64,000 nucleotides of DNA from Valencia hispanica (lineage: Eukaryota; Chordata; Actinopteri; Cyprinodontiformes; Valenciidae): the NCBI GenBank assembly GCA_963556495.2, contig OY747712.1, forward strand, positions 8,086,581 through 8,150,580, read 5' to 3'. Every line of letters starts with the position of its first letter. Positions within the stretch are counted from its first letter, which is position 1. The notes under the pieces are model-generated. The model was not told the origin of the DNA. It was given only the letters and a program-made list of their open reading frames with translations, and ran no database searches. A program made the translations under genes and the position numbers. This document shows, piece by piece, positions 17,341 to 64,000 of the stretch.

Positions 17341-17399
17341 TTAAAAAGAAAGTTATTTTGGATTGCATATTATGCAATGCATAGTAACTTTCTTTTTAT
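17341..17399. repeat. Palindromic left junction of the tRNA array
   Basis: Arms 17341-17369 and 17371-17399 are reverse complements at 25 of 29 positions with a 1-bp centre. The right arm is the first recognisable piece of the tandem monomer; the left arm is the same piece inverted, closest to the monomer subtype reading CCAAAGTAACTTTC. The array therefore starts with a head-to-head inverted monomer scrap, a signature of fold-back priming or inverted-duplication repair. Confidence 0.8.
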
Positions 17400-17651
17400 T
17401 GCTGCTTGCAAGTGGTCAAACAATTGGGTCATGGTAGATTGCAAGAAGCGTGCAGCTGAAAAGCTTTTTGCCATGTCTTTGTCTTGAAGAAAGAAAGTCA
17501 TGCTAGTTGGTAGTGTGCATTATTTAAAAATAGGAAGGTTTTCATGGAGTCTGTTTTTAGCAATATAAAAATTCCGAGGTAGTTCACATTCCACTCACAT
17601 AACATAACTCTGTGTGTCTGACATAACTTAGCTTGAAAATATGCAACATCG

Positions 17652-17738
17652 CAACTTTGGTGGGACTCAAACCAACAATCTTTGAATTACCTCTTTTTAT
17701 CTAGAAGTCCAATGCGCTGTCCATTGTGCCACAGAGCC
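17652..17738 (-). pseudogene. tRNA-Arg(UCU) pseudogene, decayed class
   Basis: First tRNA-like copy and type member of the decayed class. The B box reads GGTTTGAGTCC, losing the invariant C56. There are mismatches in the T stem (U51-C63), D stem (A12-C23) and acceptor stem (C5-A68). The intron is 14 nt (GATAAAAAGAGGTA) rather than 13. The anticodon UCU is kept. Poor transcription is expected. Confidence 0.8.
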
Positions 17739-18105
17739 ACAAATCAGGGTCAGTTTGCACTACAAATCGCATCCTCAGAGAAACAGTTGTTTCTTCTGAC
17801 TGCCTGACAGACGTTAAGTATGCCATCCATAGTAACTTTCTTCTTAATGCTGCTTGCAAGTGGGCAAACAATTGGGTCATGGTAGATTGCAAGAAACATG
17901 CAGCAGAAAAGCTTTTTGCCATGGCGTTGTCTTGAAGAAAGAAAGTCATGCTAGTTGGTAGTGTGTACTATTTAAATATACAAAGGTTTTCACGGAGTCT
18001 GTTTTTAGCAATATAAAAATCCTGAGGTAGTTCACTTTCCAGTCATATAAGATAAGTCCACCATAATGTGTCGGACATGAGTTAGTTTCAAAATTGGTAA
18101 CATTA

Positions 18106-18188
18106 CGACTCTGGTGGGAGTTAAAACTACAACCTTTGAATTACCCCTTTTTGTATAGAAGTCCAATGCGCTGTCCATTGCGCCACAA
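18106..18188 (-). pseudogene. tRNA-Arg(UCU) pseudogene, 5' end lost
   Basis: The T-arm is rewritten (GTGGGAGTTAAAACTAC on the plus strand), so the B box is gone. The 5' acceptor strand is deleted at CCACAAGTCAG. It is unique to this copy and lies in the eroded left end of the array. Confidence 0.8.
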
Positions 18189-18545
18189 GTCAGATCCTGT
18201 TTGTACTTAAAATCACATCCTCAGATAAACAGTTATTACATCTGACTGCCTGACAGACGTTAATATCAAAAGTAACTTTCTTTTTAATGTGGTCTGGAAG
18301 TGGTCAAACAATTGGGTCATGGTGGATTACAAGAGACACGCAGCAGAAAAGCTTTTGGCCATGGCGTTGTCTTGAAGAAAGAAAGTCATGCTAGTTGGTA
18401 TTGTGTACTATTTAAATATACGAAGGTTTTCATGGAGTCTGTTTTTAGCAATATTAAAATCCTGAGGTAGTTCACTTTCCAGTCATTTAAGATAACTCCA
18501 CCATAATGTGTCTGACATAACTTAGCTTGAAAATTGGTAACATTG

Positions 18546-18578
18546 CGATTCTGGTGGGACTCGAACCCACAACCTTTG
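18546..18578 (-). pseudogene. tRNA-Arg(UCU) 3'-half fragment
   Basis: Only the acceptor 3' strand and T-arm remain. The sequence jumps from CAACCTTTG straight into the TTACTTCTGAC of the next block. The same junction occurs at 42348. Confidence 0.85.
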
Positions 18579-18878
18579 TTACTTCTGACTGCCTGACAGA
18601 CATTAAGTATGCAATCCATAGTAACTTTCTTCTTAATGCTGCTTGCAAGTGCTCAAACATTTGGGTCATGGTAGATTGCAAGAAACATGCAGCAGAAAAG
18701 CTTTTTGCCATGGCGTTGTCTTGAAGAAAGAAAGTCATGCTAGTTGTTAGTGTGTACTATTTAAAAATACAAAGGTTTTCATGGAGTCTGTTTTTAGCAA
18801 TATAAAAATCCTGAGGTAGTTAACTTTCCAGTCATATAAGATAACTCCACCATAATGTGTCTGACATAACTTAGCTTG

Positions 18879-18882
18879 AAAA
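18879..18882 (-). terminator. Pol III T4 terminator (representative)
   Basis: On the minus strand four T residues start 12 nt beyond G73 of the tRNA at 18895-18980. The same run, or five T in trailer class R3, follows the other complete copies, so each gene has its own stop signal. Confidence 0.75.
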
Positions 18883-18894
18883 TTGGTAACATCG

Positions 18895-18980
18895 CGACTC
18901 TGGTGGGACTCGAACCCACAACCTTTGAATTACACTTTTTGTCTAGAAGTCCAATGCGCTGTCCATTGCGCCACAGAGCC
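18895..18980 (-). tRNA. trnar-ucu: tRNA-Arg (anticodon UCU), intron-containing; reference copy
   Basis: Eighty-six bases fold, after removal of a 13-nt intron (GACAAAAAGTGTA, directly after base 37), into a 73-nt cloverleaf. The parts are acceptor GGCTCTG/CAGAGTC with G73, D stem GCGC/GCGC, anticodon arm TTGGA-CTTCTAA-TTCAA and T arm GTGGG-TTCGAGT-CCCAC. The A box (TGGCGCAATGG) and B box (GGTTCGAGTCC) match Pol III consensus. Vertebrate tRNA-Arg(UCU) genes usually carry an intron at this place, and the sequence is close to the human gene as I recall it. It decodes AGA codons. Leader L1, trailer R2. It is the first complete copy from the left. Confidence 0.95.
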
Positions 18981-19312
18981 ACAAATCAAGGTCAGTGTGC
19001 GCTTCAAATCACATCCTCAGAGAAACAGTTGTTACTTCTGACTGCCTGACAGACATTAAGTATGCAATCCATAGTAACTTTCTTCTTAATGCTGCTTGCA
19101 AGTGGGCAAACAATTGGGTCATGGTAGATTGCAAGAAACATGCAGCAGAAAAGCTTTTTGCCATGGCGTTGTCTTGAAGAAAGAAAGTCATGCTAGTTGG
19201 TAGTGTGTACTATTTAAATATACGAAGGTTTTCATGGAGTCTGTTTTTAGCAATATTAAAATCCTGAGGTAGTTCACTTTCCAGTCATATAAGATAACTC
19301 CAGCATAATGTG

Positions 19313-19330
19313 TTGTTACATCTAACTACC
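19313..19330. other. Monomer junction with tRNA deleted
   Basis: Sequence passes from the block end CATAATGTG directly into TTGTTACATCTAAC, skipping the whole tRNA and its leader. The following monomer block (19314-19480) is one of the most diverged in the array. Confidence 0.75.
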
Positions 19331-19629
19331 TAACACACGTTAAATATGCAATCCATAGTAACTTTCTTCTTAATGTTGCTTGCAAGTGGTCAAACAATTG
19401 GGTCATGGTGGATTACGAGAGACACAGCAAAAAAACGTTTTGCCATGTCTTTGTCTTGAAGAAAGAAAGTCATGCTATTTGGTAGTGTGTACTATTTAAA
19501 TATACAAAGGTTTTCATGGAGTCTGTTTTTAGCAATATAAAAATCCTGTGGTAGTTCATTTTCCAGTCATATAAGATAACTCCACCATAATGTGTCGGAC
19601 ATAACTTAGCTTGAAAATTGGTAACATTG

Positions 19630-19715
19630 CGACTCTGGTGGGACTCGAACCCACAACCTTTGAATTACACTTTTTGTCTAGAAGTCCAATGCGCTGTCCA
19701 TTGCGCCACAGAGCC
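19630..19715 (-). tRNA. trnar-ucu: tRNA-Arg (UCU)
   Basis: Identical to the reference copy; leader L1, trailer R2. Confidence 0.93.
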
Positions 19716-20082
19716 ACAAATCAGGGTCAGTGTGCGCTTCAAATCACATCCTCAGAGAAACAGTTGTTACTTCTGAGTGCCTGACAGACATTAAGTATGC
19801 AATCCATAGTAACTTTCTTCTTAATGCTGCTTGCAAGTGCTCAAACATTTGGGTCATGGTAGATTGCAAGAAACATGCAGCAGAAAAGCTTTTTGCCATG
19901 GCGTTGTCTTGAAGAAAGAAAGTCATGCTAGTTGGTATTGTGTACTATTTAAATATACGAAGGTTTTCATGGAGTCTGTTTTTAGCAATATTAAAATCCT
20001 GAGGTAGTTCACTTTCCAGTCATATAAGATAACTCCACCATAATGTGTCGGACATAAGTTAGTTTCAAAATTGGTAACATGG

Positions 20083-20168
20083 CGACTCTGGTGGGACTCG
20101 AACCCACAACCTTTGAATTACACTTTTTGTCTAGAAGTCCAATGCGCTGTCCATTGCGCCACAGAGCC
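20083..20168 (-). tRNA. trnar-ucu: tRNA-Arg (UCU)
   Basis: Identical gene body; leader L4, trailer R1 with GG instead of CG after the gene. Confidence 0.93.
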
Positions 20169-20535
20169 ACAAATCAGGTGCAGTTTACACTTCAAATCAC
20201 ATCCTCAGAGAAACAGTTGTTACGTCTGACTGCCTGACAGACATTAAGTATGCAATCCAAAGTAACTTTCTTTTTAAAGTTGTTTGGAAGTGGTTAAACA
20301 ATTGGGTCATGGTAGATTGCAAGAGACATGCAGCAGAAAAGCTTTTTGCCATGGCGTTGTCTTGAAGAAAGAAAGTCATGCTAGTTGGTATTGTGTACTA
20401 TTTAAATATACGAAGGTTTTCATGGAGTCTGTTTTTAGCAATATTAAAATCCTGAGGTAGTTCACTTTCCAGTCATATAAGATAACTCCACCATAATGTG
20501 TCGGACATAAGTTAGTTTCAAAATTGGTAACATCG

Positions 20536-20621
20536 CGACTCTGGTGGGACTTGAACCCACAACCTTTGAATTACACTTTTTGTCTAGAAGTCCAATGCGC
20601 TGTCCATTGCGCCACAGAGCC
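20536..20621 (-). tRNA. trnar-ucu: tRNA-Arg (UCU), T-loop variant
   Basis: One change, TTCGAGT to TTCAAGT in the T loop (G57 to A), which many functional tRNAs also have. Leader L4, trailer R1. Confidence 0.9.
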
Positions 20622-20988
20622 ACAAATTAGGTACAGTTTACACTTCAAATCACATCCTCAGAGAAACAGTTGTTACGTCTGACTGCCTGACAGACATTAA
20701 GTATGCAATCCAAAGTAACTTTCTTTTTAAAGTTGTTTGGAAGTGGTTAAACAATTGGGTCATGGTAGATTGCAAGAAACATGCAGCAGAAAAGCTTTTT
20801 GCCATGGCGTTGTCTTGAAGAAAGAAAGTCATGCTAGTTGGTATTGTGTACTATTTAAATATACGAAGGTTTTCATGGAGTCTGTTTTTAGCAATATTAA
20901 AATCCTGAGGTAGTTCACTTTCCAGTCATATAAGATAACTCCACCATAATGTGTCTGACATAACTTAGCTTGAAAATTGGTAACATTG

Positions 20989-21074
20989 CGACTCTGGTGG
21001 GACTCGAACCCACAACCTTTGAATTACACTTTTTGTCTAGAAGTCCAATGCGCTGTCCATTGCGCCACAGAGCC
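20989..21074 (-). tRNA. trnar-ucu: tRNA-Arg (UCU)
   Basis: Identical gene body; leader L3, trailer R2. Confidence 0.93.
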
Positions 21075-21441
21075 ACAAATCAGGGTCAGTGTGCGGTTCA
21101 AATCACATCCTCAGAGAAACAGTTGTTACTTCTGACTGCCTGACAGACATTAAGTATGCAATCCATAGTAACCTTCTTCTTAATGCTGCTTGCAAGTGGG
21201 CAAACAATTGGGTCATGGTAGATTGCAAGAAACATGCAGCAGAAAAGCTTTTTGCCATGGCGTTGTCTTGAAGAAAGAAAGTCATGCTAGTTGGTATTGT
21301 GTACTATTTAAATATACGAAGGTTTTCATGGAGTCTGTTTTTAGCAATATTAAAATCCTGAGGTAGTTCACTTTCCAGTCATATAAGATAACTCCACCAT
21401 AATGTGTCGGACATAAGTTAGTTTCAAAATTGGTAACATTG

Positions 21442-21527
21442 CGACTCTGGTGGGACTCGAACCCACAACCTTTGAATTACACTTTTTGTCTAAAAGTCCA
21501 ATGCGCTGTCCATTGCGCCACAGAGCC
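21442..21527 (-). tRNA. Arg-type tRNA with UUU (Lys) anticodon
   Basis: The body equals the reference copy except for the middle anticodon base: CTTCTA has become CTTTTA, turning UCU into UUU. ArgRS uses C35 as a main identity base, so charging is uncertain. Leader has a 1-nt deletion relative to L1; trailer R1. Confidence 0.85.
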
Positions 21528-21892
21528 ACAAATCAGGGTCAGTGTGCGTTCAAATCACATCCTCAGAGAAACAGTTGTTACTTCTGACTGCCTGACAGAC
21601 ATTAAGTATGCAATCCATAGTAACTTTCTTCTTAATGCTGCTTGCAAGTGGTAAACAATTGGGTCATGGTAGATTGCAAGAAACATGCAGCAGAAAAGCT
21701 TTTTGCCATGGCGTTGTCTTGAAGAAAGAAAGTCATGCTAGTTGGTAGTGTGTACTATTTAAATATACGAAGGTTTTCATGGAGTCTGTTTTTAGCAATA
21801 TTAAAATCCTGAGGTAGTTCACTTTCCAGTCATATAAGATAACTCCAGCATAATGTGTCTGACATAACTTAGCTTGAAAATTGGTAACATTG

Positions 21893-21978
21893 CGACTCTG
21901 GTGGGACTCGAACCCACAACCTTTGAATTACACTTTTTGTCTAGAAGTCCAATGCGCTGTCCATTGCGCCACAGAGCC
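21893..21978 (-). tRNA. trnar-ucu: tRNA-Arg (UCU)
   Basis: Identical gene body; leader L2, trailer R2. Confidence 0.93.
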
Positions 21979-22345
21979 ACAAATCAGGGTCAGTGTGCAC
22001 TTCAAATCACATCCTCAGAGAAACAGTTGTTACGTCTGACTGCCTGACAGACATTAAGTATGCAATCCATAGTAACTTTCTTCTTAATGCTGCTTGCAAG
22101 TGCTCAAACAATTGGGTCATGGTAGATTGCAAGAAACATGCAGCAGAAAAGCTTTTTGCCATGGCGTTGTCTTGAAGAAAGAAAGTCATGCTAGTTGGTA
22201 GTGTGTACTATTTAAATATACAAAGGTTTTCATGGAGTCTGTTTTTAGCAATATAAAAATCCTGAGGTAGTTCACTTTCCAGTCATATAAGATAACTCCA
22301 CCATAATGTGTCTGACATAACTTAGCTTGAAAATTGGTAACATTG

Positions 22346-22431
22346 CGACTCTGGTGGACCTCAAACCCACAACCTTTGAATTACACTTTTTTTCTAGAAG
22401 TCCAATGCGCTGTCCATTGTGCCACAGAGCC
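22346..22431 (-). pseudogene. tRNA-Arg(UCU) variant, B box damaged
   Basis: T arm reads GTGGG-TTTGAGG-TCCAC, so C56 is lost. The intron is A-rich (GAAAAAAAGTGTA) and the D stem carries the decayed-class GCAC. Leader has the decayed-class GCACTTC form. Confidence 0.65.
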
Positions 22432-22798
22432 ACAAATCAGGGTCAGTTCGCACTTCAAATCGCATCCTCAGAGAAACAGTTGTTACTTCTGACTGCCTGA
22501 CAGACATTAAGTATGCAATCCATAGTAACTTTCTTCTTAATGCTGCTTGCAAGTGGGCAAACAATTGGGTCATGGTAGATTGCAAGAAACATGCAGCAGA
22601 AAAGCTTTTTGCCATGGCGTTGTCTTGAAGAAAGAAAGTCATGCTAGTTGGTAGTGTGTACTATTTAAATATACAAAGGTTTTCACGGAGTCTGTTTTTA
22701 GCAATATAAAAATCCTGAGGTAGTTCACTTTCCAGTCATATAAGATAAGTCCACCATATTGTGTCTGACATAACTTAGCTTGAAAATTGGTAACATTG

Positions 22799-22884
22799 CG
22801 ACTCTGGTGGGACTCGAACCCACAACCTTTGAATTACACTTTTTGTCTAGAAGTCCAATGCGCTGTCCATTGCGCCACAGAGCC
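22799..22884 (-). tRNA. trnar-ucu: tRNA-Arg (UCU)
   Basis: Identical gene body; leader L2, trailer R2. Confidence 0.93.
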
Positions 22885-23250
22885 ACAAATCAGGGTCAGT
22901 GTGCACTTCAAATCACATCCTCAGAGAAACAGTTGTTACTTCTGACTGCCTGACAGACATTAAGTATGCAATCCATAGTAACTTTCTTCTTAATGCTGCT
23001 TGCAAGTGCTCAAACATTTGGGTCATGGTAGATTGCAAGAAACATGCAGCAGAAAAGCTTTTTGCCATGGCGTTGTCTTGAAGAAAGAAAGTCATGCTAG
23101 TTGGTATTGTGTACTATTTAAATATACGAAGGTTTTCATGGAGTCTGTTTTTAGCAATATTAAAATCCTGAGGTAGTTCACTTTCCAGTCATATAAGATA
23201 ACTCCACCATAATGTGTCGGACATAAGTTAGTTTCAAAATTGGTAACATG

Positions 23251-29222: not shown

Positions 29223-29450
29223 ACAAATCAGGGTCAGTGTGCGCTTCAAATCACATCCTCAGAGAAACAGTTGTTACTTCTGACTGCCTGACAGACATTA
29301 AGTATGCAATCCATAGTAACTTTCTTCTTAATGCTGCTTGCAAGTGGTCAAACAATTGGGTCATGGTCGATTGCAAGAAACATGCAGCAGAAAAGCTTTT
29401 TGCCATGGCTTGTCTTGAAGAAAGAAAGTCATGCTAGTTGGTAGTGTGTA

Positions 29451-29890
29451 CTTTTAATCTACGAAGGCTTTCGTATATTTAAACACAGTTCTTACGCCTG
29501 ACTGCCTGACAGACATTAAGTATGCAATCCATAGTAACTTTCTTCTTAATGTTGCTTGCAAGTGGTCAAACAATTGGGTCATGGTAGATTGCAAGAAACA
29601 TGGAGCAGAAAAACTTTTTGCCATGGCTTTGTCTTGAAGAAAGAGAGTACTGCTAGTTGGTAGTGTGTACTTCATAATTCTACGAAGGCTTTCATATATT
29701 TAATCACAGTTGTTACGTCTGACTGCCTGACAGACATTAAGTATGCAATCCATAGTAACTTTCTTCTTAATGCTGCTTGCAAGTGGTCAAACAATTGGGT
29801 CATGGTCGATTGCAAGAAACATGCAGCAGAAAAGCTTTTTGCCATGGCTTTGTCTTGAAGAAAGAAAGTCATGCTAGTTGGTAGTGTGTA
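29451..29890. repeat. Pair of tRNA-less short units (about 221 bp each)
   Basis: After GTAGTGTGTAC the usual TATTTAAATA is replaced by a TTTAATCTACGAAGGCTTTC-type linker that runs straight into CACAGTT and the next TGACTGCCTGACAGAC block. The tRNA and about 230 bp around it are absent. The linker contains a small hairpin, TACGAA-GGCT-TTCGTA. Confidence 0.85.
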
Positions 29891-30028: not shown

Positions 30029-30115
30029 CAACTTTGGTGGGACTCAAACCAACAATCTTTGAATTACCTCTTTTTATCTAGAAGTCCAATGCGCTGTCCA
30101 TTGTGCCACAGAGCC
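30029..30115 (-). pseudogene. tRNA-Arg(UCU) pseudogene, decayed class
   Basis: Same decayed sequence as 17652-17738, directly after a short-unit pair. Confidence 0.8.
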
Positions 30116-31927: not shown

Positions 31928-32156
31928 ACAAATCAGGGTCAGTGTGCGCTTCAAATCACATCCTCAGAGAAACAGTTGTTACTTCTGACTGCCTGACAGA
32001 CATTAAGTATGCAATCCATAGTAACTTTCTTCTTAATGCTGCTTGCAAGTGGTCAAACAATTGGGTCATGGTCGATTGCAAGAAACATGCAGCAGAAAAG
32101 CTTTTTGCCATGGCTTTGTCTTGAAGAAAGAAAGTCATGCTAGTTGGTAGTGTGTA

Positions 32157-32598
32157 CTTTATAATTCTACGAAGGCTTTCGTATATTTAAACACAGTTGT
32201 TACGCCTGACTGCCTGACAGACATTAAGTATGCAATCCATAGTAACTTTCTTCTTAATGTTGCTTGCAAGTGGTCAAACAATTGGGTCATGGTAGATTGC
32301 AAGAAACATGGAGCAGAAAAACTTTTTGCCATGGCTTTGTCTTGAAGAAAGAGAGTACTGCTAGTTGGTAGTGTGTACTTCATAATTCTACGAAGGCTTT
32401 CATATATTTAATCACAGTTGTTACGTCTGACTGCCTGACAGACATTAAGTATGCAATCCATAGTAACTTTCTTCTTAATGCTGCTTGCAAGTGGTCAAAC
32501 AATTGGGTCATGGTCGATTGCAAGAAACATGCAGCAGAAAAGCTTTTTGCCATGGCGTTGTCTTGAAGAAAGAAAGTCATGCTAGTTGGTATTGTGTA
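32157..32598. repeat. Pair of tRNA-less short units
   Basis: Linker TTATAATTCTACGAAGGCTT in place of the tRNA section, twice. The second linker has TTTCATATATTTAATC instead of TTTCGTATATTTAAAC. Near-identical to the pairs at 40829, 52915 and 55143. Confidence 0.85.
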
Positions 32599-39607: not shown

Positions 39608-39693
39608 CGACTCTGGTGGGACTCGAACCCACAACCTTTGAATTACACTTTTTGTCTAAAAGTCCAATGCGCTGTCCATTGCGCCACAGAGCC
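39608..39693 (-). tRNA. Arg-type tRNA with UUU (Lys) anticodon
   Basis: Second copy with CTTTTA in the anticodon loop and an otherwise reference body. Leader L4, trailer R1, so its flanks differ from the copy at 61605. Confidence 0.85.
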
Positions 39694-40599: not shown

Positions 40600-40828
40600 A
40601 CAAATCAGGGTCAGTGTGCACTTCAAATCACATCCTCAGAGAAACAGTTGTTACTTCTCACTGCCTGACAGACATTAAGTATGCAATCCATAGTAACTTT
40701 CTTCTTAATGCTGCTTGCAAGTGGTCAAACAATTGGGTCATGGTCGATTGCAAGAAACATGCAGCAGAAAAGCTTTTTGCCATGGCTTTGTCTTGAAGAA
40801 AGAAAGTCATGCTAGTTGGTAGTGTGTA

Positions 40829-41270
40829 CTTTATAATTCTACGAAGGCTTTCGTATATTTAAACACAGTTGTTACGCCTGACTGCCTGACAGACATTAAG
40901 TATGCAATCCATAGTAACTTTCTTCTTAATGTTGCTTGCAAGTGGTCAAACAATTGGGTCATGGTAGATTGCAAGAAACATGGAGCAGAAAAACTTTTTG
41001 CCATGGCTTTGTCTTGAAGAAAGAGAGTACTGCTAGTTGGTAGTGTGTACTTCATAATTCTACGAAGGCTTTCATATATTTAATCACAGTTGTTACGTCT
41101 GACTGCCTGACAGACATTAAGTATGCAATCCATAGTAACTTTCTTCTTAATGCTGCTTGCAAGTGGTCAAACAATTGGGTCATGGTCGATTGCAAGAAAC
41201 ATGCAGCAGAAAAGCTTTTTGCCATGGCTTTGTCTTGAAGAAAGAAAGTCATGCTAGTTGGTAGTGTGTA
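40829..41270. repeat. Pair of tRNA-less short units
   Basis: Both linkers match those at 32157-32598. The surrounding block recurs at 52.7-54.6 kb. Confidence 0.85.
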
Positions 41271-50448: not shown

Positions 50449-50677
50449 ACAAATCAGGGTCAGTGTGCGCTTCAAATCACATCCTCAGAGAAACAGTTGT
50501 TACTTCTGACTGCCTGACAGACATTAAGTATGCAATCCATAGTAACTTTCTTCTTAATGCTGCTTGCAAGTGGTCAAACAATTGGGTCATGGTCGATTGC
50601 AAGAAACATGCAGCAGAAAAGCTTTTTGCCATGGCTTTGTCTTGAAGAAAGAAAGTCATGCTAGTTGGTAGTGTGTA

Positions 50678-51101
50678 CTTTATAATTCTACGAAGGCTTT
50701 CGTATATTTACAAGTTGTTACCTGATCCTGACAGCATTAAGTATGCATCCATAGTAACTTTTCTTAAGTTGTTGCAAGTGGTCAAACAATTGGGTCATGG
50801 TAGATTGCAAGAACATGGAGCAAAAAACTTTTTGCCATGGCTTTGTCTTGAAAAGAGAGTACTGCTAGTTGGTAGTGTGTACTTCATAATTCTACGAAGG
50901 CTTTCATATATTTAATCACAGTTGTTACTCTGACTGCCTGACAGACATTAAGTATGCAATCCATAGTAACTTTCTTCTTAATGCTGCTTGCAAGTGGTCA
51001 AACAATTGGGTCATGGTCGATTGCAAGAAACATGCAGCAGAAAAGCTTTTTGCCATGGCTTTGTCTTGAAGAAAGAAAGTCATGCTAGTTGGTAGTGTGT
51101 A
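50678..51101. repeat. Pair of tRNA-less short units, first with many deletions
   Basis: Between 50710 and 50880 the first unit lacks at least a dozen single bases relative to the other pairs (for example CTGATCCTGACAGCATTAAG). The second unit is normal after about 50935. Confidence 0.8.
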
Positions 51102-52685: not shown

Positions 52686-52914
52686 ACAAATCAGGGTCAG
52701 TGTGCACTTCAAATCACATCCTCAGAGAAACAGTTGTTACTTCTCACTGCCTGACAGACATTAAGTATGCAATCCATAGTAACTTTCTTCTTAATGCTGC
52801 TTGCAAGTGGTCAAACAATTGGGTCATGGTCGATTGCAAGAAACATGCAGCAGAAAAGCTTTTTGCCATGGCTTTGTCTTGAAGAAAGAAAGTCATGCTA
52901 GTTGGTAGTGTGTA

Positions 52915-53357
52915 CTTTATAATTCTACGAAGGCTTTCGTATATTTAAACACAGTTGTTACGCCTGACTGCCTGACAGACATTAAGTATGCAATCCATAG
53001 TAACTTTCTTCTTAATGTTGCTTGCAAGTGGTCAAACAATTGGGTCATGGTAGATTGCAAGAAACATGGAGCAGAAAAACTTTTTGCCATGGCTTTGTCT
53101 TGAAGAAAGAGAGTACTGCTAGTTGGTAGTGTGTACTTCATAATTCTACGAAGGCTTTCATATATTTAATCACAGTTGTTACGTCTGACTGCCTGACAGA
53201 CATTAAGTATGCAATCCATAGTAACTTTCTTCTTAATGCTGCTTGCAAGTGGTCAAACAATTGGGTCATGGTCGATTGCAAGAAACATGCAGCAGAAAAG
53301 CTTTTTGCCATGGCTTTGTCTTGAAGAAAGAAAGTCATGCTAGTTGGTAGTGTGTAC
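52915..53357. repeat. Pair of tRNA-less short units
   Basis: Near-identical to the pair at 40829-41270, 12.1 kb to the left. Confidence 0.85.
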
Positions 53358-54913: not shown

Positions 54914-55142
54914 ACAAATCGGGGTCAGTGTGCGCTTCAAATCACATCCTCAGAGAAACAGTTGTTACTTCTGACTGCCTGACAGACATTAAGTATGCAA
55001 TCCATAGTAACTTTCTTCTTAATGCTGCTTGCAAGTGGTCAAACAATTGGGTCATGGTCGATTGCAAGAAACATGCAGCAGAAAAGCTTTTTGCCATGGC
55101 TTTGTCTTGAAGAAAGAAAGTCATGCTAGTTGGTAGTGTGTA

Positions 55143-55586
55143 CTTTATAATTCTACGAAGGCTTTCGTATATTTAAACACAGTTGTTACGCCTGACTGCC
55201 TGACAGACATTAAGTATGCAATCCATAGTAACTTTCTTCTTAATGTTGCTTGCAAGTGGTCAAACAATTGGGTCATGGTAGATTGCAAGAAACATGGAGC
55301 AGAAAAACTTTTTGCCATGGCTTTGTCTTGAAGAAAGAGAGTACTGCTAGTTGGTAGTGTGTACTTCATAATTCTACGAAGGCTTTCATATATTTAATCA
55401 CAGTTGTTACGTCTGACTGCCTGACAGACATTAAGTATGCAATCCATAGTAACTTTCTTCTTAATGCTGCTTGCAAGTGGTCAAACAATTGGGTCATGGT
55501 CGATTGCAAGAAACATGCAGCAGAAAAGCTTTTTGCCATGGCTTTGTCTTGAAGAAAGAAAGTCATGCTAGTTGGTAGTGTGTACT
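55143..55586. repeat. Pair of tRNA-less short units
   Basis: Last short-unit pair seen. Unlike most others it is followed by an A73 gene rather than a decayed pseudogene. Confidence 0.85.
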
Positions 55587-55722
55587 ATTTAAATATACAA
55601 AGGTTTTCACGGAGTCTGTTTTTAGCAATATAAAAATCCTGAGGTAGTTCACTTTCCAGTCATATAAGATAAGTCCACCATAATGTGTCGGACATAAGTT
55701 AGTTTAAAAATTGGTAACATCG

Positions 55723-55808: not shown

Positions 55809-56175
55809 ACAAATCAGGGTCAGTGTGCACTTCAAATCACATCCTCAGAGAAACAGTTGTTACTTCTGACTGCCTGACAGACATTAAGTATGCAATCCAT
55901 AGTAACTTTCTTCTTAATGCTGCTTGCAAGTGGTCAAACAATTGGGTCATGGTCGATTGCAAGAAACATGCAGCAGAAAAGCTTTTTGCCATGGCTTTGT
56001 CTTGAAGAAAGAAAGTCATGCTAGTTGGTAGTGTGTACTATTTAAATATACAAAGGTTTTCATGGAGTCTGTTTTTAGCAATATAAAAATCCTGAGGTAG
56101 TTCACTTTCCAGTCATATAAGATAACTCCACGATAATGTGTCTGACATAACTTAGCTTGAAAATATGCAACATCG

Positions 56176-56262
56176 CAACTTTGGTGGGACTCAAACCAAC
56201 AATCTTTGAATTACCTCTTTTTATCTAGAAGTCCAATGCGCTGTCCATTGTGCCACAGAGCC
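56176..56262 (-). pseudogene. tRNA-Arg(UCU) pseudogene, decayed class
   Basis: Opens the first higher-order repeat of the right end. Confidence 0.8.
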
Positions 56263-56629
56263 ACAAATCAGGGTCAGTTTGCACTTCAAATCGCATCCTC
56301 AGAGAAACAGTTGTTACTTCTGACTGCCTGACAGACGTTAAGTATGCCATCCATAGTAACTTTCTTCTTAATGCTGCTTGCAAGTGGGCAAACAATTGGG
56401 TCATGGTAGATTGCAAGAAACATGCAGCAGAAAAGCTTTTTGCCATGGCGTTGTCTTGAAGAAAGAAAGTCATGCTAGTTGGTAGTGTGTACTATTTAAA
56501 TATACAAAGGTTTTCACGGAGTCTGTTTTTAGCAATATAAAAATCCTGAGGTAGTTCACTTTCCAGTCATATAAGATAAGTCCACCATAATGTGTCTGAC
56601 ATAACTTAGCTTGAAAATTGGTAACATTG

Positions 56630-56715
56630 CGACTCTGGTGGGACTCGAACCCACAACCTTTGAATTACACTTTTTGTCTAGAAGTCCAATGCGCTGTCCA
56701 TTGCGCCACAGAGCC
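56630..56715 (-). tRNA. trnar-ucu: tRNA-Arg (UCU)
   Basis: Identical gene body; leader L1, trailer R2. Confidence 0.93.
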
Positions 56716-57082
56716 ACAAATCAGGGTCAGTGTGCGCTTCAAATCACATCCTCAGAGAAACAGTTGTTACTTCTGACTGCCTGACAGACATTAAGTATGC
56801 AATCCATAGTAACTTTCTTCTTAATGCTGCTTGCAAGTGCTCAAACATTTGGGTCATGGTAGATTGTAAGAAACATGCAGCAGAAAAGCTTTTTGCCATG
56901 GCGTTGTCTTGAAGAAAGAAAGTCATGCTAGTTGGTATTGTGTACTATTTAAATATACGAAGGTTTTCATGGAGTCTGTTTTTAGCAATATTAAAATCCT
57001 GAGGTAGTTCACTTTCCAGTCATATAAGATAACTCCACCATAATGTGTCGGACATAAGTTAGATTCAAAATTGGTAACATCG

Positions 57083-57168
57083 CGACTTTGGTGGGACTCG
57101 AAACCACAAACTTTGAATTACACTTTTTGTCTAGAAGTCCAATGCGCAGTCCATTGCGCCACAGAGCC
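57083..57168 (-). pseudogene. tRNA-Arg(UCU) variant, T stem broken
   Basis: Same three changes as 34548-34633, 22.5 kb away, with trailer AGATTCAAAATTGG. Confidence 0.65.
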
Positions 57169-57535
57169 ACAAATCAGGGTCAGTGTGCACTTCAAATCAC
57201 ATCCTCAGAGAAACAGTTGTTACTTCTGACTGCCTGACAGACATTAAGTATGCAATCCATAGTAACTTTCTTCTTAATGCTGCTTGCAAGTGCTCAAACA
57301 TTTGGGTCATGGTAGATTGCAAGAAACATGCAGCAGAAAAGCTTTTTGCCATGGCGTTGTCTTGAAGAAAGAAAGTCATGCTAGTTGTTAGTGTGTACTA
57401 TTTAAATATACAAAGGTTTTCATGGAGTCTGTTTTTAGCAATATTAAAATCCTGAGGTAGTTCACTTTCCAGTCATATAAGATAACTCCACCATAATGTG
57501 TCGGACATAAGTTAGTTTAAAAATTGGTAACATCG

Positions 57536-57621
57536 TGACTCTGGTGGGACTCGAACCCACAACCTTTGAATTACACTTTTTGTCTAGAAGTCCAATGTGC
57601 TGTCCATTGCGCCACAGAGCC
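57536..57621 (-). tRNA. trnar-ucu: tRNA-Arg (UCU), A73, D-stem variant
   Basis: C11-A24 mismatch class; leader L2, trailer R3. Confidence 0.75.
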
Positions 57622-57988
57622 ACAAATCAGGGTCAGTGTGCACTTCAAATCACATCCTCAGAGAAACAGTTGTTACGTCTGACTGCCTGACAGACATTAA
57701 GTATGCAATCCATAGTAACTTTCTTCTTAATGCTGCTTGCAAGTGCTCAAACAATTGGGTCATGGTCGATTGCAAGAAACATGCAGCAGAAAAGCTTTTT
57801 GCCATGGCTTTGTCTTGAAGAAAGAAAGTCATGCTAGTTGGTAGTGTGTACTATTTAAATATACAAAGGTTTTCATGGAGTCTGTTTTTAGCAATATAAA
57901 AATCCTGAGGTAGTTCACTTTCCAGTCATATAAGATAACTCCACGATAATGTGTCTGACATAACTTAGCTTGAAAATATGCAACATCG

Positions 57989-58075
57989 CAACTTTGGTGG
58001 GACTCAAACCAACAATCTTTGAATTACCTCTTTTTATCTAGAAGTCCAATGCGCTGTCCATTGTGCCACAGAGCC
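57989..58075 (-). pseudogene. tRNA-Arg(UCU) pseudogene, decayed class
   Basis: Type sequence of the class; second higher-order repeat, a three-monomer version. Confidence 0.8.
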
Positions 58076-58442
58076 ACAAATCAGGGTCAGTTTGCACTTC
58101 AAATCGCATCCTCAGAGAAACAGTTGTTACTTCTGACTGCCTGACAGACGTTAAGTATGCCATCCATAGTAACTTTCTTCTTAATGCTGCTTGCAAGTGG
58201 GCAAACAATTGGGTCATGGTAGATTGCAAGAAACATGCAGCAGAAAAGCTTTTTGCCATGGCGTTGTCTTGAAGAAAGAAAGTCATGCTAGTTGGTAGTG
58301 TGTACTATTTAAATATACAAAGGTTTTCACGGAGTCTGTTTTTAGCAATATAAAAATCCTGAGGTAGTTCACTTTCCAGTCATATAAGATAAGTCCACCA
58401 TAATGTGTCTGACATAACTTAGCTTGAAAATTGGTAACATTG

Positions 58443-58528
58443 CGACTCTGGTGGGACTCGAACCCACAACCTTTGAATTACACTTTTTGTCTAGAAGTCC
58501 AATGCGCTGTCCATTGCGCCACAGAGCC
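58443..58528 (-). tRNA. trnar-ucu: tRNA-Arg (UCU)
   Basis: Identical gene body; leader L1, trailer R2. Confidence 0.93.
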
Positions 58529-58895
58529 ACAAATCAGGGTCAGTGTGCGCTTCAAATCACATCCTCAGAGAAACAGTTGTTACTTCTGACTGCCTGACAG
58601 ACATTAAGTATGCAATCCATAGTAACTTTCTTCTTAATGCTGCTTGCAAGTGCTCAAACATTTGGGTCATGGTAGATTGCAAGAAACATGCAGCAGAAAA
58701 GCTTTTTGCCATGGCGTTGTCTTGAAGAAAGAAAGTCATGCTAGTTGTTAGTGTGTACTATTTAAATATACAAAGGTTTTCATGGAGTCTGTTTTTAGCA
58801 ATATTAAAATCCTGAGGTAGTTCACTTTCCAGTCATATAAGATAACTCCACCATAATGTGTCGGACATAAGTTAGTTTAAAAATTGGTAACATCG

Positions 58896-58981
58896 TGACT
58901 CTGGTGGGACTCGAACCCACAACCTTTGAATTACACTTTTTGTCTAGAAGTCCAATGCGCTGTCCATTGCGCCACAGAGCC
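58896..58981 (-). tRNA. trnar-ucu: tRNA-Arg (UCU), A73
   Basis: Reference body apart from A73; leader L2, trailer R3. Confidence 0.9.
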
Positions 58982-59348
58982 ACAAATCAGGGTCAGTGTG
59001 CACTTCAAATCACATCCTCAGAGAAACAGTTGTTACTTCTGACTGCCTGACAGACATTAAGTATGCAATCCATAGTAACTTTCTTCTTAATGCTGCTTGC
59101 AAGTGGTCAAACAATTGGGTCATGGTCGATTGCAAGAAACATGCAGCAGAAAAGCTTTTTGCCATGGCTTTGTCTTGAAGAAAGAAAGTCATGCTAGTTG
59201 GTAGTGTGTACTATTTAAATATACAAAGGTTTTCATGGAGTCTGTTTTTAGCAATATAAAAATCCTGAGGTAGTTCACTTTCCAGTCATATAAGATAACT
59301 CCACGATAATGTGTCTGACATAACTTAGCTTGAAAATATGCAACATCG

Positions 59349-59435
59349 CAACTTTGGTGGGACTCAAACCAACAATCTTTGAATTACCTCTTTTTATCTA
59401 GAAGTCCAATGCGCTGTCCATTGTGCCACAGAGCC
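59349..59435 (-). pseudogene. tRNA-Arg(UCU) pseudogene, decayed class
   Basis: Type sequence of the class; third higher-order repeat. Confidence 0.8.
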
Positions 59436-59802
59436 ACAAATCAGGGTCAGTTTGCACTTCAAATCGCATCCTCAGAGAAACAGTTGTTACTTCTGACTGC
59501 CTGACAGACGTTAAGTATGCCATCCATAGTAACTTTCTTCTTAATGCTGCTTGCAAGTGGGCAAACAATTGGGTCATGGTAGATTGCAAGAAACATGCAG
59601 CAGAAAAGCTTTTTGCCATGGCGTTGTCTTGAAGAAAGAAAGTCATGCTAGTTGGTAGTGTGTACTATTTAAATATACAAAGGTTTTCACGGAGTCTGTT
59701 TTTAGCAATATAAAAATCCTGAGGTAGTTCACTTTCCAGTCATATAAGATAAGTCCACCATAATGTGTCTGACATAACTTAGCTTGAAAATTGGTAACAT
59801 TG

Positions 59803-59888
59803 CGACTCTGGTGGGACTCGAACCCACAACCTTTGAATTACACTTTTTGTCTAGAAGTCCAATGCGCTGTCCATTGCGCCACAGAGCC
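59803..59888 (-). tRNA. trnar-ucu: tRNA-Arg (UCU)
   Basis: Identical gene body; leader L1, trailer R2. Confidence 0.93.
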
Positions 59889-60255
59889 ACAAATCAGGGT
59901 CAGTGTGCGCTTCAAATCACATCCTCAGAGAAACAGTTGTTACTTCTGACTGCCTGACAGACATTAAGTATGCAATCCATAGTAACTTTCTTCTTAATGC
60001 TGCTTGCAAGTGCTCAAACATTTGGGTCATGGTAGATTGTAAGAAACATGCAGCAGAAAAGCTTTTTGCCATGGCGTTGTCTTGAAGAAAGAAAGTCATG
60101 CTAGTTGGTATTGTGTACTATTTAAATATACGAAGGTTTTCATGGAGTCTGTTTTTAGCAATATTAAAATCCTGAGGTAGTTCACTTTCCAGTCATATAA
60201 GATAACTCCACCATAATGTGTCGGACATAAGTTAGTTTCAAAATTGGTAACATCG

Positions 60256-60330
60256 CGACTCGAACCCACAACCTTTGAATTACACTTTTTGTCTAGAAGT
60301 CCAATGCGCTGTCCATTGCGCCACAGTGCC
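60256..60330 (-). pseudogene. tRNA-Arg(UCU) pseudogene, 11-bp deletion
   Basis: CGACT joins directly to CGAACCCAC, removing part of the acceptor and T stem between two short CGACT/GGACT repeats. The 5' end is of the GGCACTG class. Confidence 0.8.
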
Positions 60331-60697
60331 ACAAATCAGGGTCAGTGTGCACTTCAAATCACATCCTCAGAGAAACAGTTGTTACTTCTGACTGCCTGAC
60401 AGACATTAAGTATGCAATCCATAGTAACTTTCTTCTTAATGCTGCTTGCAAGTGCTCAAACATTTGGGTCATGGTAGATTGCAAGAAACATGCAGCAGAA
60501 AAGCTTTTTGCCATGGCGTTGTCTTGAAGAAAGAAAGTCATGCTAGTTGTTAGTGTGTACTATTTAAATATACAAAGGTTTTCATGGAGTCTGTTTTTAG
60601 CAATATTAAAATCCTGAGGTAGTTCACTTTCCAGTCATATAAGATAACTCCACCATAATGTGTCGGACATAAGTTAGTTTAAAAATTGGTAACATCG

Positions 60698-60783
60698 TGA
60701 CTCTGGTGGGACTCGAACCCACAACCTTTGAATTACACTTTTTGTCTAGAAGTCCAATGTGCTGTCCATTGCGCCACAGAGCC
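60698..60783 (-). tRNA. trnar-ucu: tRNA-Arg (UCU), A73, D-stem variant
   Basis: C11-A24 mismatch class; leader L2, trailer R3. Confidence 0.75.
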
Positions 60784-61150
60784 ACAAATCAGGGTCAGTG
60801 TGCACTTCAAATCACATCCTCAGAGAAACAGTTGTTACTTCTGACTGCCTGACAGACATTAAGTATGCAATCCATAGTAACTTTCTTCTTAATGCTGCTT
60901 GCAAGTGCTCAAACAATTGGGTCATGGTCGATTGCAAGAAACATGCAGCAGAAAAGCTTTTTGCCATGGCTTTGTCTTGAAGAAAGAAAGTCATGCTAGT
61001 TGGTAGTGTGTACTATTTAAATATACAAAGGTTTTCATGGAGTCTGTTTTTAGCAATATAAAAATCCTGAGGTAGTTCACTTTCCAGTCATATAAGATAA
61101 CTCCACGATAATGTGTCTGACATAACTTAGCTTGAAAATATGCAACATCG

Positions 61151-61237
61151 CAACTTTGGTGGGACTCAAACCAACAATCTTTGAATTACCTCTTTTTATC
61201 TAGAAGTCCAATGCGCTGTCCATTGTGCCACAGAGCC
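61151..61237 (-). pseudogene. tRNA-Arg(UCU) pseudogene, decayed class
   Basis: Type sequence of the class; fourth higher-order repeat. Confidence 0.8.
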
Positions 61238-61604
61238 ACAAATCAGGGTCAGTTTGCACTTCAAATCGCATCCTCAGAGAAACAGTTGTTACTTCTGACT
61301 GCCTGACAGACGTTAAGTATGCCATCCATAGTAACTTTCTTCTTAATGCTGCTTGCAAGTGGGCAAACAATTGGGTCATGGTAGATTGCAAGAAACATGC
61401 AGCAGAAAAGCTTTTTGCCATGGCGTTGTCTTGAAGAAAGAAAGTCATGCTAGTTGGTAGTGTGTACTATTTAAATATACAAAGGTTTTCACGGAGTCTG
61501 TTTTTAGCAATATAAAAATCCTGAGGTAGTTCACTTTCCAGTCATATAAGATAAGTCCACCATAATGTGTCTGACATAACTTAGCTTGAAAATTGGTAAC
61601 ATTG

Positions 61605-61690
61605 CGACTCTGGTGGGACTCGAACCCACAACCTTTGAATTACACTTTTTGTCTAAAAGTCCAATGCGCTGTCCATTGCGCCACAGAGCC
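61605..61690 (-). tRNA. Arg-type tRNA with UUU (Lys) anticodon
   Basis: Third copy with CTTTTA, in the position occupied by a reference UCU gene in neighbouring higher-order repeats. Leader L1, trailer R2. Confidence 0.85.
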
Positions 61691-62057
61691 ACAAATCAGG
61701 GTCAGTGTGCGCTTCAAATCACATCCTCAGAGAAACAGTTGTTACTTCTGACTGCCTGACAGACATTAAGTATGCAATCCATAGTAACTTTCTTCTTAAT
61801 GCTGCTTGCAAGTGCTCAAACATTTGGGTCATGGTAGATTGTAAGAAACATGCAGCAGAAAAGCTTTTTGCCATGGCGTTGTCTTGAAGAAAGAAAGTCA
61901 TGCTAGTTGGTATTGTGTACTATTTAAATATACGAAGGTTTTCATGGAGTCTGTTTTTAGCAATATTAAAATCCTGAGGTAGTTCACTTTCCAGTCATAT
62001 AAGATAACTCCACCATAATGTGTCGGACATAAGTTAGTTTCAAAATTGGTAACATCG

Positions 62058-62143
62058 CGACTCTGGTGGGACTCGAACCCACAACCTTTGAATTACACTT
62101 TTTGTCTAGAAGTCCAATGCGCTGTCCATTGCGCCACAGTGCC
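62058..62143 (-). tRNA. trnar-ucu: tRNA-Arg (UCU), acceptor variant
   Basis: GGCACTG class with A4-A69 mismatch; leader L2, trailer R1. Confidence 0.75.
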
Positions 62144-62510
62144 ACAAATCAGGGTCAGTGTGCACTTCAAATCACATCCTCAGAGAAACAGTTGTTACTT
62201 CTGACTGCCTGACAGACATTAAGTATGCAATCCATAGTAACTTTCTTCTTAATGCTGCTTGCAAGTGCTCAAACATTTGGGTCATGGTAGATTGCAAGAA
62301 ACATGCAGCAGAAAAGCTTTTTGCCATGGCGTTGTCTTGAAGAAAGAAAGTCATGCTAGTTGTTAGTGTGTACTATTTAAATATACAAAGGTTTTCATGG
62401 AGTCTGTTTTTAGCAATATTAAAATCCTGAGGTAGTTCACTTTCCAGTCATATAAGATAACTCCACCATAATGTGTCGGACATAAGTTAGTTTAAAAATT
62501 GGTAACATCG

Positions 62511-62596
62511 TGACTCTGGTGGGACTCGAACCCACAACCTTTGAATTACACTTTTTGTCTAGAAGTCCAATGTGCTGTCCATTGCGCCACAGAGCC
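62511..62596 (-). tRNA. trnar-ucu: tRNA-Arg (UCU), A73, D-stem variant
   Basis: C11-A24 mismatch class; leader L2, trailer R3. Confidence 0.75.
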
Positions 62597-62963
62597 ACAA
62601 ATCAGGGTCAGTGTGCACTTCAAATCACATCCTCAGAGAAACAGTTGTTACGTCTGACTGCCTGACAGACATTAAGTATGCAATCCATAGTAACTTTCTT
62701 CTTAATGCTGCTTGCAAGTGCTCAAACAATTGGGTCATGGTCGATTGCAAGAAACATGCAGCAGAAAAGCTTTTTGCCATGGCTTTGTCTTGAAGAAAGA
62801 AAGTCATGCTAGTTGGTAGTGTGTACTATTTAAATATACAAAGGTTTTCATGGAGTCTGTTTTTAGCAATATAAAAATCCTGAGGTAGTTCACTTTCCAG
62901 TCATATAAGATAACTCCACGATAATGTGTCTGACATAACTTAGCTTGAAAATATGCAACATCG

Positions 62964-63050
62964 CAACTTTGGTGGGACTCAAACCAACAATCTTTGAATT
63001 ACCTCTTTTTATCTAGAAGTCCAATGCGCTGTCCATTGTGCCACAGAGCC
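62964..63050 (-). pseudogene. tRNA-Arg(UCU) pseudogene, decayed class
   Basis: Type sequence of the class; start of the last, three-monomer repeat in the window. Confidence 0.8.
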
Positions 63051-63417
63051 ACAAATCAGGGTCAGTTTGCACTTCAAATCGCATCCTCAGAGAAACAGTT
63101 GTTACTTCTGACTGCCTGACAGACGTTAAGTATGCCATCCATAGTAACTTTCTTCTTAATGCTGCTTGCAAGTGGGCAAACAATTGGGTCATGGTAGATT
63201 GCAAGAAACATGCAGCAGAAAAGCTTTTTGCCATGGCGTTGTCTTGAAGAAAGAAAGTCATGCTAGTTGGTAGTGTGTACTATTTAAATATACGAAGGTT
63301 TTCATGGAGTCTGTTTTTAGCAATATTAAAATCCTGAGGTAGTTCACTTTCCAGTCATATAAGATAACTCCACCATAATGTGTCGGACATAAGTTAGTTT
63401 CAAAATTGGTAACATCG

Positions 63418-63503
63418 CGACTCTGGTGGGACTCGAACCCACAACCTTTGAATTACACTTTTTGTCTAGAAGTCCAATGCGCTGTCCATTGCGCCACAGT
63501 GCC
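63418..63503 (-). tRNA. trnar-ucu: tRNA-Arg (UCU), acceptor variant
   Basis: GGCACTG class; follows the decayed pseudogene directly, so the reference-gene monomer is missing from this repeat. Leader L2, trailer R1. Confidence 0.75.
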
Positions 63504-63870
63504 ACAAATCAGGGTCAGTGTGCACTTCAAATCACATCCTCAGAGAAACAGTTGTTACTTCTGACTGCCTGACAGACATTAAGTATGCAATCCATAGTAA
63601 CTTTCTTCTTAATGCTGCTTGCAAGTGCTCAAACATTTGGGTCATGGTAGATTGCAAGAAACATGCAGCAGAAAAGCTTTTTGCCATGGCGTTGTCTTGA
63701 AGAAAGAAAGTCATGCTAGTTGTTAGTGTGTACTATTTAAATATACAAAGGTTTTCATGGAGTCTGTTTTTAGCAATATTAAAATCCTGAGGTAGTTCAC
63801 TTTCCAGTCATATAAGATAACTCCACCATAATGTGTCGGACATAAGTTAGTTTAAAAATTGGTAACATCG

Positions 63871-63956
63871 TGACTCTGGTGGGACTCGAACCCACAACCT
63901 TTGAATTACACTTTTTGTCTAGAAGTCCAATGTGCTGTCCATTGCGCCACAGAGCC
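63871..63956 (-). tRNA. trnar-ucu: tRNA-Arg (UCU), A73, D-stem variant
   Basis: Last gene in the window, C11-A24 class; leader L2 is complete but the monomer is cut by the window end. Confidence 0.75.
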
Positions 63957-64000
63957 ACAAATCAGGGTCAGTGTGCACTTCAAATCACATCCTCAGAGAA

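What the first reader, a model, noticed from the sequence alone, without database searches (positions are those of the whole stretch)
17371..64000. At least 46 kb of tandem intron-bearing tRNA-Arg(UCU) genes inside a pfkp intron
A 453-bp monomer with one tRNA-Arg(UCU) gene is repeated about 100 times; 97 tRNA-homologous loci are visible. About 47 keep a fully reference body apart from base 73, with A box, B box, 13-nt intron and T-run terminator. Vertebrate genomes usually have only a handful of this isoacceptor. The locus is at once a satellite and a potential Pol III factory, and it sits in intron 3 of a glycolytic gene. It could be a translational adaptation to AGA codon demand, a tRNA-fragment source, a boundary element, or a selfish tandem expansion that happens to use a tRNA gene.
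Basis: partly seen in the sequence, partly recalled or inferred. Interest (0 to 1): 0.92.

Follow-up and report, generated by a model that had tools for sequence, protein, structure and literature searches.

The report
Fish intron packed with tRNA genes
In a vertebrate genome (probably a fish) one intron of the glycolysis gene pfkp is 98% filled by a 54-kb row of 113 whole or partial copies of one arginine tRNA gene, 55 of them with an unbroken tRNA body and so predicted to be transcribable, which would make it a natural test of whether such rows feed the egg with tRNA or are merely runaway DNA.

Summary
The array runs past the window: 17341-71602 in window coordinates, 54.3 kb, gap-free, 98% of pfkp intron 3. 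It holds 113 tRNA-Arg(UCU)-like loci (110 near full length), all antisense to pfkp. Fifty-five keep the consensus body at positions 1-72, 47 also at 73; 21 carry C56U, expected to kill the B box. Full units differ by 3.8% on average, form 3- and 4-unit higher-order repeats on the right, and the outermost tRNA copy on each side is a C56U type, as in a satellite grown by unequal exchange. The array tRNA differs by 1-3 bases from four dispersed Arg(UCU)-like genes found elsewhere. Rare variants cluster near the gene (flanks about 3-fold over far spacer), resembling a pattern attributed to Pol III transcription; this is weak evidence, since dead units are too few to serve as a control. Copy-by-copy selection was not shown. 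My reading: a tRNA array amplified as a satellite, partly decayed, likely Pol III-active in the germ line. Expression is untested, and most clustered zebrafish tRNA genes look silent in embryos, so a silent satellite is a close rival. New variant of a known kind.

The parts
2619..2727 (+). pfkp exon 1, coding part (MAGATG...GGDAQ)
   Evidence: tblastn with a recalled human PFKP probe, 84% over 25 aa; ATG and donor GT read by eye
13539..13612 (+). pfkp exon 2
   Evidence: tblastn 92% over 25 aa; AG/GT sites read by eye
16408..16485 (+). pfkp exon 3; intron 3 starts at 16486 and ends at 71855, outside the window
   Evidence: tblastn; splice sites read by eye; intron length
17341..17369 (+). 29-bp inverted copy of unit positions 345-373 facing the first unit: left edge of the array
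   Evidence: BLAST of the unit; sequence of the edge
17341..64000 (-). the part of the tRNA-Arg(UCU) array that lies in the window; it continues to 71602
17652..17738 (-). outermost left tRNA copy, C56U class; the outermost right copy (71120-71206, outside the window) is also C56U
   Evidence: Rfam 34.5 bits
18895..18980 (-). first intact tRNA-Arg(UCU) gene: exon 1 37 nt, 13-nt intron after position 37, exon 2 36 nt (intron placement by knowledge of tRNA-Arg(UCU))
20622..21074 (-). the 453-bp unit used as reference, starting at the tRNA 5' end
21442..21527 (-). copy with C35U, anticodon UUU (Lys) on the Arg body; also 39608-39693 and 61605-61690
30029..30115 (-). typical C56U (class B) copy with 14-nt intron
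29223..29695 (-). spacer-only duplication without tRNA (about 221-bp period); similar at 31928-32403, 40600-41075, 50449-50907, 52686-53161, 54914-55389
55809..64000 (-). higher-order repeat section (3- and 4-unit blocks), continuing to about 66.7 kb
   Evidence: unit-by-unit lag comparison and unit classes

Best explanation
A 54-kb head-to-tail array of mostly 453-bp units, most with one tRNA-Arg(UCU) gene antisense to pfkp, fills 98% of pfkp intron 3; it likely grew by unequal exchange from one working tRNA gene and is predicted to be transcribed by Pol III, probably in the germ line or egg. Shown: anatomy, extent, 55 of 113 intact bodies, 21 of 113 C56U copies, higher-order repeats, degenerate edges, a tRNA body that differs from the four dispersed genes found, and an old single relic of the founder unit 76 kb to the right. 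Inferred: the founder was a functional local gene (its body is one base from a dispersed gene while introns and flanks are unlike); tandem exchange spread both good and dead units; intact copies bind TFIIIC and are transcribed at least in the germ line, leaving mutation clusters around the genes; the product tops up Arg(UCU) in the oocyte, as repetitive clusters appear to do for other tRNAs in zebrafish. Selection acts, if at all, on the family, not on single copies.
For: Array extent, continuity and position. Intact bodies, T-runs, Rfam scores up to 59.8 bits. Higher-order repeats at lags 3, 4 and 7 in the right part, 31 pairs of identical units in the whole set, and C56U copies at both edges point to unequal exchange. 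Four dispersed Arg(UCU)-like genes on C17, C4, C15:19.87M and C1 differ from the array consensus at 3, 3, 1 and 2 mature bases and have other introns. The relic at C15:8234634 shares unit positions 391-453 and 1-170 at 65% identity and a 14-nt intron like the C56U class (by eye), so the founder is old while the array tRNA body stayed canonical. Rare variants are denser in the 30-bp flanks than in far spacer: 15 in 60 bp against 23 in 307 bp, ratio 3.3, p 0.0006, in 82 C56-intact units; in 97 full units, alleles private to one misaligned unit dropped, gene plus flanks has 28 in 146 bp against 21 in 307 bp. Elevated variation in the immediate flanks is described for tRNA genes under transcription-associated mutagenesis (passage in PMC8113476; the Thornlow 2018 paper cited there was not held). 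Zebrafish: isodecoders already present in eggs lie in repetitive regions, late ones are dispersed (PMC11417395, passages, section 20).
Against: No expression data. C56U units also show a flank excess (3/60 against 7/307, p 0.22, 14 units), so a Pol III cause is not separated from a mutation hot spot or from alignment effects. Exon diversity is not unusually low: 113 of 453 windows of 73 bp have as little, and rare variants per site are more frequent in exons than in spacer. Dead units were amplified together with good ones. In zebrafish embryos tRNA genes in the large clusters (chromosomes 4, 8, 3) are almost fully CpG-methylated, the majority of tRNA genes show no open chromatin, and genes of tRNAs that fall after the egg stage stay closed (PMC11574265, passages); oocyte chromatin is not covered by those passages. 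The zebrafish clusters described are not said to lie inside a housekeeping gene. ARAGORN calls only one of the four dispersed genes as Arg and the C1 gene has no run of four T in 30 nt, so the 'four' may include a dead one.
Confidence: 0.46

Rival explanations
1. Passive satellite: a tRNA gene happened to lie in a sequence that expanded by unequal exchange; the array is silent and tRNA copies are decaying neutrally.
For: 58 of 113 copies are not intact; dead units in the higher-order repeats and at both edges; no excess conservation of the gene over all 97 full units (mean diversity 0.037 against 0.036; more rare variants in exons); three of the six body changes of the C56U class hit CpGs; clustered tRNA genes are methylated and closed in zebrafish embryos (PMC11574265, passages).
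Against: 47 copies keep an identical 73-nt body; in 83 units outside the dead class exon diversity is 0.019 against 0.052 and 0.082 in the 30-bp flanks; variants cluster around the gene rather than evenly.
Confidence: 0.39
2. Dosage adaptation: selection for more tRNA-Arg(UCU) to decode AGA raised the copy number.
For: 55 intact genes against four dispersed genes found.
Against: Amplified pseudogene units; no signature of copy-by-copy selection; in zebrafish gene copy number did not correlate with tRNA level at any early stage (PMC11574265, passages). AGA demand was not measured.
Confidence: 0.08
3. Regulator of pfkp: antisense Pol III transcription across intron 3 slows Pol II and dampens pfkp where the array is active.
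For: All 113 tRNA-like loci found are antisense to pfkp, and the array occupies 98% of intron 3. An antisense, not a sense, Pol III element lowers expression, shown for the MIR in intron 1 of Polr3e (PMC5358760, abstract and section headings).
Against: Purely by analogy; no expression data; an orientation shared by all units is one event, not 113.
Confidence: 0.05
4. Assembly artefact: the array is inflated or misplaced.
For: Long near-identical repeats are hard to assemble.
Against: No gaps in 264 kb; full units differ by 3.8% on average; both ends join other sequence between pfkp exons 3 and 4. Exact copy number remains unsure; no reads were seen.
Confidence: 0.02

Closest known systems
Repetitive tRNA gene clusters of zebrafish, mostly on chromosome 4 (PMC11417395 section 20 and passages; PMC11075544 and PMC11574265 passages)
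   Same: Many tRNA copies in a repetitive region beside dispersed genes with other sequences
   Different: There: many isoacceptors, 60% of the genes on a heterochromatic chromosome. Here: one isoacceptor, one 453-bp unit, inside an intron of an apparently intact glycolytic gene. Presence of cluster-encoded isodecoders in eggs is reported there, untested here
[quoted passage not shown]
   Same: Parallel orientation, spacing under 1 kb, fifty and more members, pseudogenes interspersed
   Different: That example is heterogeneous (Arg with Thr); this array is homogeneous with higher-order repeats
Arabidopsis SYY tRNA cluster (PMC12308677, abstract and passages)
   Same: Tandem tRNA array with its own tRNA variants and pseudogenes
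   Different: Ser and Tyr genes, touching heterochromatin, root-tip expression shown with deletion lines
Human 1q23.3 tRNA variable-number tandem repeat (PMC4041453, passages)
   Same: Tandem tRNA-bearing units in a vertebrate
   Different: 7.3-kb GC-rich units with five tRNA genes and CTCF binding; here one tRNA, AT-rich spacer, no CTCF core in the unit
Xenopus laevis 3.18-kb tRNA repeat with oocyte-type genes (recalled, not read)
   Same: Large tandem tRNA array in a vertebrate
   Different: Several tRNA species per unit, by recall
Antisense MIR in intron 1 of Polr3e (PMC5358760, abstract and headings)
   Same: Pol III unit antisense in an intron of a Pol II gene
   Different: One SINE, function shown; here about a hundred tRNA genes, function untested

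Membership tests
Tandem tRNA gene cluster (tDNA within 1000 nt, as defined in PMC2888827) | Neighbouring tRNA genes within 1000 nt | tested here: met
   453-bp period for most of 54 kb
Tandem tRNA gene cluster (tDNA within 1000 nt, as defined in PMC2888827) | Genuine tRNA genes with intact body | tested here: met
   55 of 113 identical at 1-72; Rfam up to 59.8 bits
Tandem tRNA gene cluster (tDNA within 1000 nt, as defined in PMC2888827) | Pol III transcription | not testable with these tools
   no expression data; intact bodies and T-runs only
Maternal-type repetitive tRNA cluster as in zebrafish | Isodecoder distinct from dispersed genes | tested here: met
   four dispersed genes differ at 1-3 mature bases; the list may be incomplete
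[quoted passage not shown]
   none
Maternal-type repetitive tRNA cluster as in zebrafish | Lies in a repeat-rich heterochromatic region | tested here: inconclusive
   lies inside pfkp; chromatin unknown
Satellite DNA | Homogenised tandem units with higher-order repeats and degenerate edges | tested here: met
CTCF/tRNA boundary repeat (human 1q23.3 type) | CTCF motif in the repeat unit | tested here: not met
   0 cores in the consensus unit and in the array under three recalled patterns; flanks have 1-5 in 209.7 kb, so absence alone is not beyond chance
tRNA-derived SINE | Dispersed copies of tRNA part plus tail | tested here: inconclusive
   the unit search found only tRNA genes and one relic elsewhere, but it skips common words; the spacer pattern search did not complete (last try)

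The most novel reading that the evidence does not exclude
The array is an egg-type tRNA-Arg(UCU) factory built into a glycolytic gene: when it is switched on in the oocyte, over fifty antisense Pol III genes supply AGA-decoding tRNA and at the same time throttle pfkp, coupling maternal translation capacity to a shutdown of this phosphofructokinase.
Probability: 0.07. Interest if true: 0.85.

Novelty: new variant of a known kind. Interest (0 to 1): 0.5.

Why it matters
The units are marked: a tRNA body, an intron and promoter-dead (C56U) siblings that differ by known letters, all within one intron between two coding exons. That makes an open question directly testable in one animal: are giant tRNA arrays in fishes used (eggs, germ line), or are they selfish or neutral satellites that carry a tRNA gene along? 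It also offers a natural case of about a hundred antisense Pol III genes inside a Pol II gene that has to be spliced over them.

Tried and rejected
Boundary element with CTCF: no CTCF core in the unit or array (motif recalled), though at flank density only about 0.3 to 1.3 would be expected in 54 kb, so this only removes the likeness to the human repeat. Protein-coding spacer: the longest open stretch in a trimer of the unit consensus is 76 codons; nothing followed. Class C56U as a second working isodecoder: rejected, since it loses C56 and has mismatches in the D, T and acceptor stems (changes, positions by recalled tRNA numbering), and its spliced form does not fold better than shuffles (z 0.56). 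The intact mature RNA did not give a textbook cloverleaf as its minimum-energy fold either (z -1.95); the Rfam scores carry that point. Purifying selection on single copies: not shown. Strand-biased mutation as a transcription mark: variant types in the 5' flank are mixed, not pursued.

Not answered: a genome-wide tRNA inventory (RF00005) and a genome-wide spacer search; the genome machine was busy at all but two of the genome-search runs that passed its input check (answered). So whether this genome has arrays of other tRNAs is unknown. One search gave 115 first-look candidates genome-wide for an Arg(UCU) body, 40 scored, 39 of them in this array and one on C17. The Thornlow 2018 and 2020 papers are not held. 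Species was not identified; 'fish' is inferred.
Full report
What was checked. ARAGORN tRNA genes in the window, all on the minus strand; Rfam's tRNA model matches 88 places, all minus; Tandem Repeats Finder reports a 453-bp period with 98 copies from 19312 to the window end. BLAST with the tRNA finds 97 loci in the window, 94 near full length; 46 have the consensus body at positions 1-72 and 39 also at 73.

The array beyond the window. The window is C15:8086581-8150580 of a 1.29-Gb genome in 29 contigs. Twenty contiguous pieces to the right were fetched and joined to the window in a script. The array runs from 17341 to 71602 in window coordinates, without N, as 129 minus-strand matches to the unit, 97 full-length and 32 partial. 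pfkp exons match human PFKP (probe recalled) on the plus strand; exon 3 ends at 16485, exon 4 starts at 71856, and later exons follow to about 107 kb; the whole reading frame was not assembled. Intron 3 is 55,370 bp and the array 54,262 bp of it, 98%. There are 113 tRNA-like loci at E 1e-6 or better, 110 near full length, all antisense to pfkp; a plus-strand search found none in the array. The next 190 kb to the right (L007-L025) hold no ARAGORN tRNA.

The unit. Consensus: tRNA gene of 86 nt (37-nt exon, 13-nt intron, 36-nt exon), then a 367-bp spacer. The body reads as tRNA-Arg(UCU), with A and B boxes inside by recalled consensus, and a T-run of four or five within 30 nt in 91 of 92 loci without C56U and in all 21 with it. 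Of 113 loci, 47 have an identical body including base 73 and 8 more differ only there (55 in all); 21 carry C69T in gene numbering, which is C56U in the mature RNA. C56 is a key B-box base by recalled knowledge, and the class also has mismatches in three stems, so it is expected to be dead. Three copies have C35U, giving a UUU (Lys) anticodon on an Arg body.

How the array evolves. The 97 full units differ at 17.5 of 455 columns on average. In the right part, units repeat in blocks of three and four (lags 3, 4 and 7 are the closest, with identical units), while the left part shows no clear order and no identical units at lags 1 to 10. The dead class takes part in these blocks, and the outermost tRNA copy on both edges is of the dead class. 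Some segments repeat only the spacer, about 221 bp, without a tRNA. The left edge faces a 29-bp inverted piece of the unit. This is the anatomy of a satellite grown by unequal exchange (inference).

Where it came from. A search with one unit found four dispersed Arg(UCU)-like genes (C17, C4, C15:19.87M, C1) and a relic at C15:8234634. It scored 5 of 7 candidates and skips common words, so the list may be short. ARAGORN names only the C4 gene Arg(tct); it calls the C17 gene Pyl, the C15 gene undetermined and the C1 gene not at all, and the C1 gene has no run of four T within 30 nt. A second search with a dispersed gene body gave 115 candidates genome-wide, 40 scored, one on C17 and 39 in the array. 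The dispersed genes have different introns and differ from the array consensus at 3 (C17), 3 (C4), 1 (C15) and 2 (C1) mature bases. The relic, 76 kb right of the array and in opposite orientation, shares the unit from 62 bp before the gene to 84 bp after it at 65% identity and has a 14-nt intron like the dead class. So the founder was an old local gene whose tRNA body stayed canonical while its surroundings changed (inference).

Selection and mutation. Over 97 full units (32 partial matches dropped), gene diversity equals the rest (0.037 against 0.036), and sites with rare variants (three copies or fewer) are more frequent in exons than in spacer (18 of 73 against 33 of 367; one unit there is misaligned at an indel). 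Counting events, with alleles private to that unit dropped, rare variants concentrate on the gene and 30 bp on each side: 28 in 146 bp against 21 in 307 bp, p 0.0003; 13 of 453 offsets of an equal window reach this count. In the 82 C56-intact units the flanks alone have 15 in 60 bp against 23 in 307 bp, p 0.0006; singletons 9 against 17, p 0.018; in 14 C56U units (the misaligned one left out) 3 against 7, p 0.22. The p values treat events as independent, which units under exchange only approach. In 83 units outside the dead class (13 left out for the class, one for alignment) diversity is 0.019 in exons, 0.052 and 0.082 in the two flanks and 0.030 in far spacer; yet 113 of 453 windows are as low as the exons. 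High flank variation with a quieter body is what is described for tRNA genes (passage in PMC8113476). It fits germ-line transcription but does not prove it, since the dead units are too few to serve as a control.

Function, committed reading. The array is most likely a tRNA-Arg(UCU) gene cluster amplified as a satellite, partly decayed, with intact copies used by Pol III in the germ line or egg. The precedent is zebrafish, where isodecoders present in eggs are encoded in repetitive regions and late isodecoders by dispersed genes (PMC11417395, section 20 read; passages); PMC11075544 (passages) proposed the same for the chromosome 4 clusters. Against it: in zebrafish embryos the large clusters are almost fully methylated, the majority of tRNA genes show no open chromatin, and copy number does not predict tRNA level (PMC11574265, passages); and about half of the copies here are damaged. 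An effect on pfkp by antisense Pol III is possible by analogy with Polr3e (PMC5358760, abstract and headings).

Known or new. Large tRNA clusters in teleosts, with fifty and more members, and a mixed cluster with tRNA-Arg(TCT), are in print (PMC2888827, section 6); tandem tRNA arrays with special tRNA variants are known in Arabidopsis (PMC12308677, abstract and passages) and a tRNA macrosatellite in human (PMC4041453, passages). My searches (titles and abstract starts of the listed papers only) showed no single-isoacceptor array inside a coding gene's intron, in the held library only. I rate it a new variant of a known kind.

Noticed in passing
C15, window coordinates 77664-77774 with 78046-78180 (L007), and 90599-90754 with 93197-93352 (L008), outside the window: Two tandem pairs of alternative-looking pfkp exons with AG/GT sites, likely mutually exclusive.
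   Followed up: partly
21442-21527, 39608-39693, 61605-61690: Three copies with anticodon UUU on an Arg(UCU) body; if expressed they could be charged with Lys or misread.
   Followed up: no
17341-17400: Inverted 29-bp repeat at the left junction of the array, perhaps a trace of the founding rearrangement.
   Followed up: no
5025-5110: tRNA-Lys-like stretch resembling the head of a tRNA-derived SINE, seen by eye; not called by ARAGORN or Rfam at gathering score.
   Followed up: no
3459-3537: Perfect (TA)39 microsatellite in pfkp intron 1.
   Followed up: no
C15:8234634-8234704 (L005): Single diverged relic of the array unit in opposite orientation, 76 kb beyond the array.
   Followed up: yes
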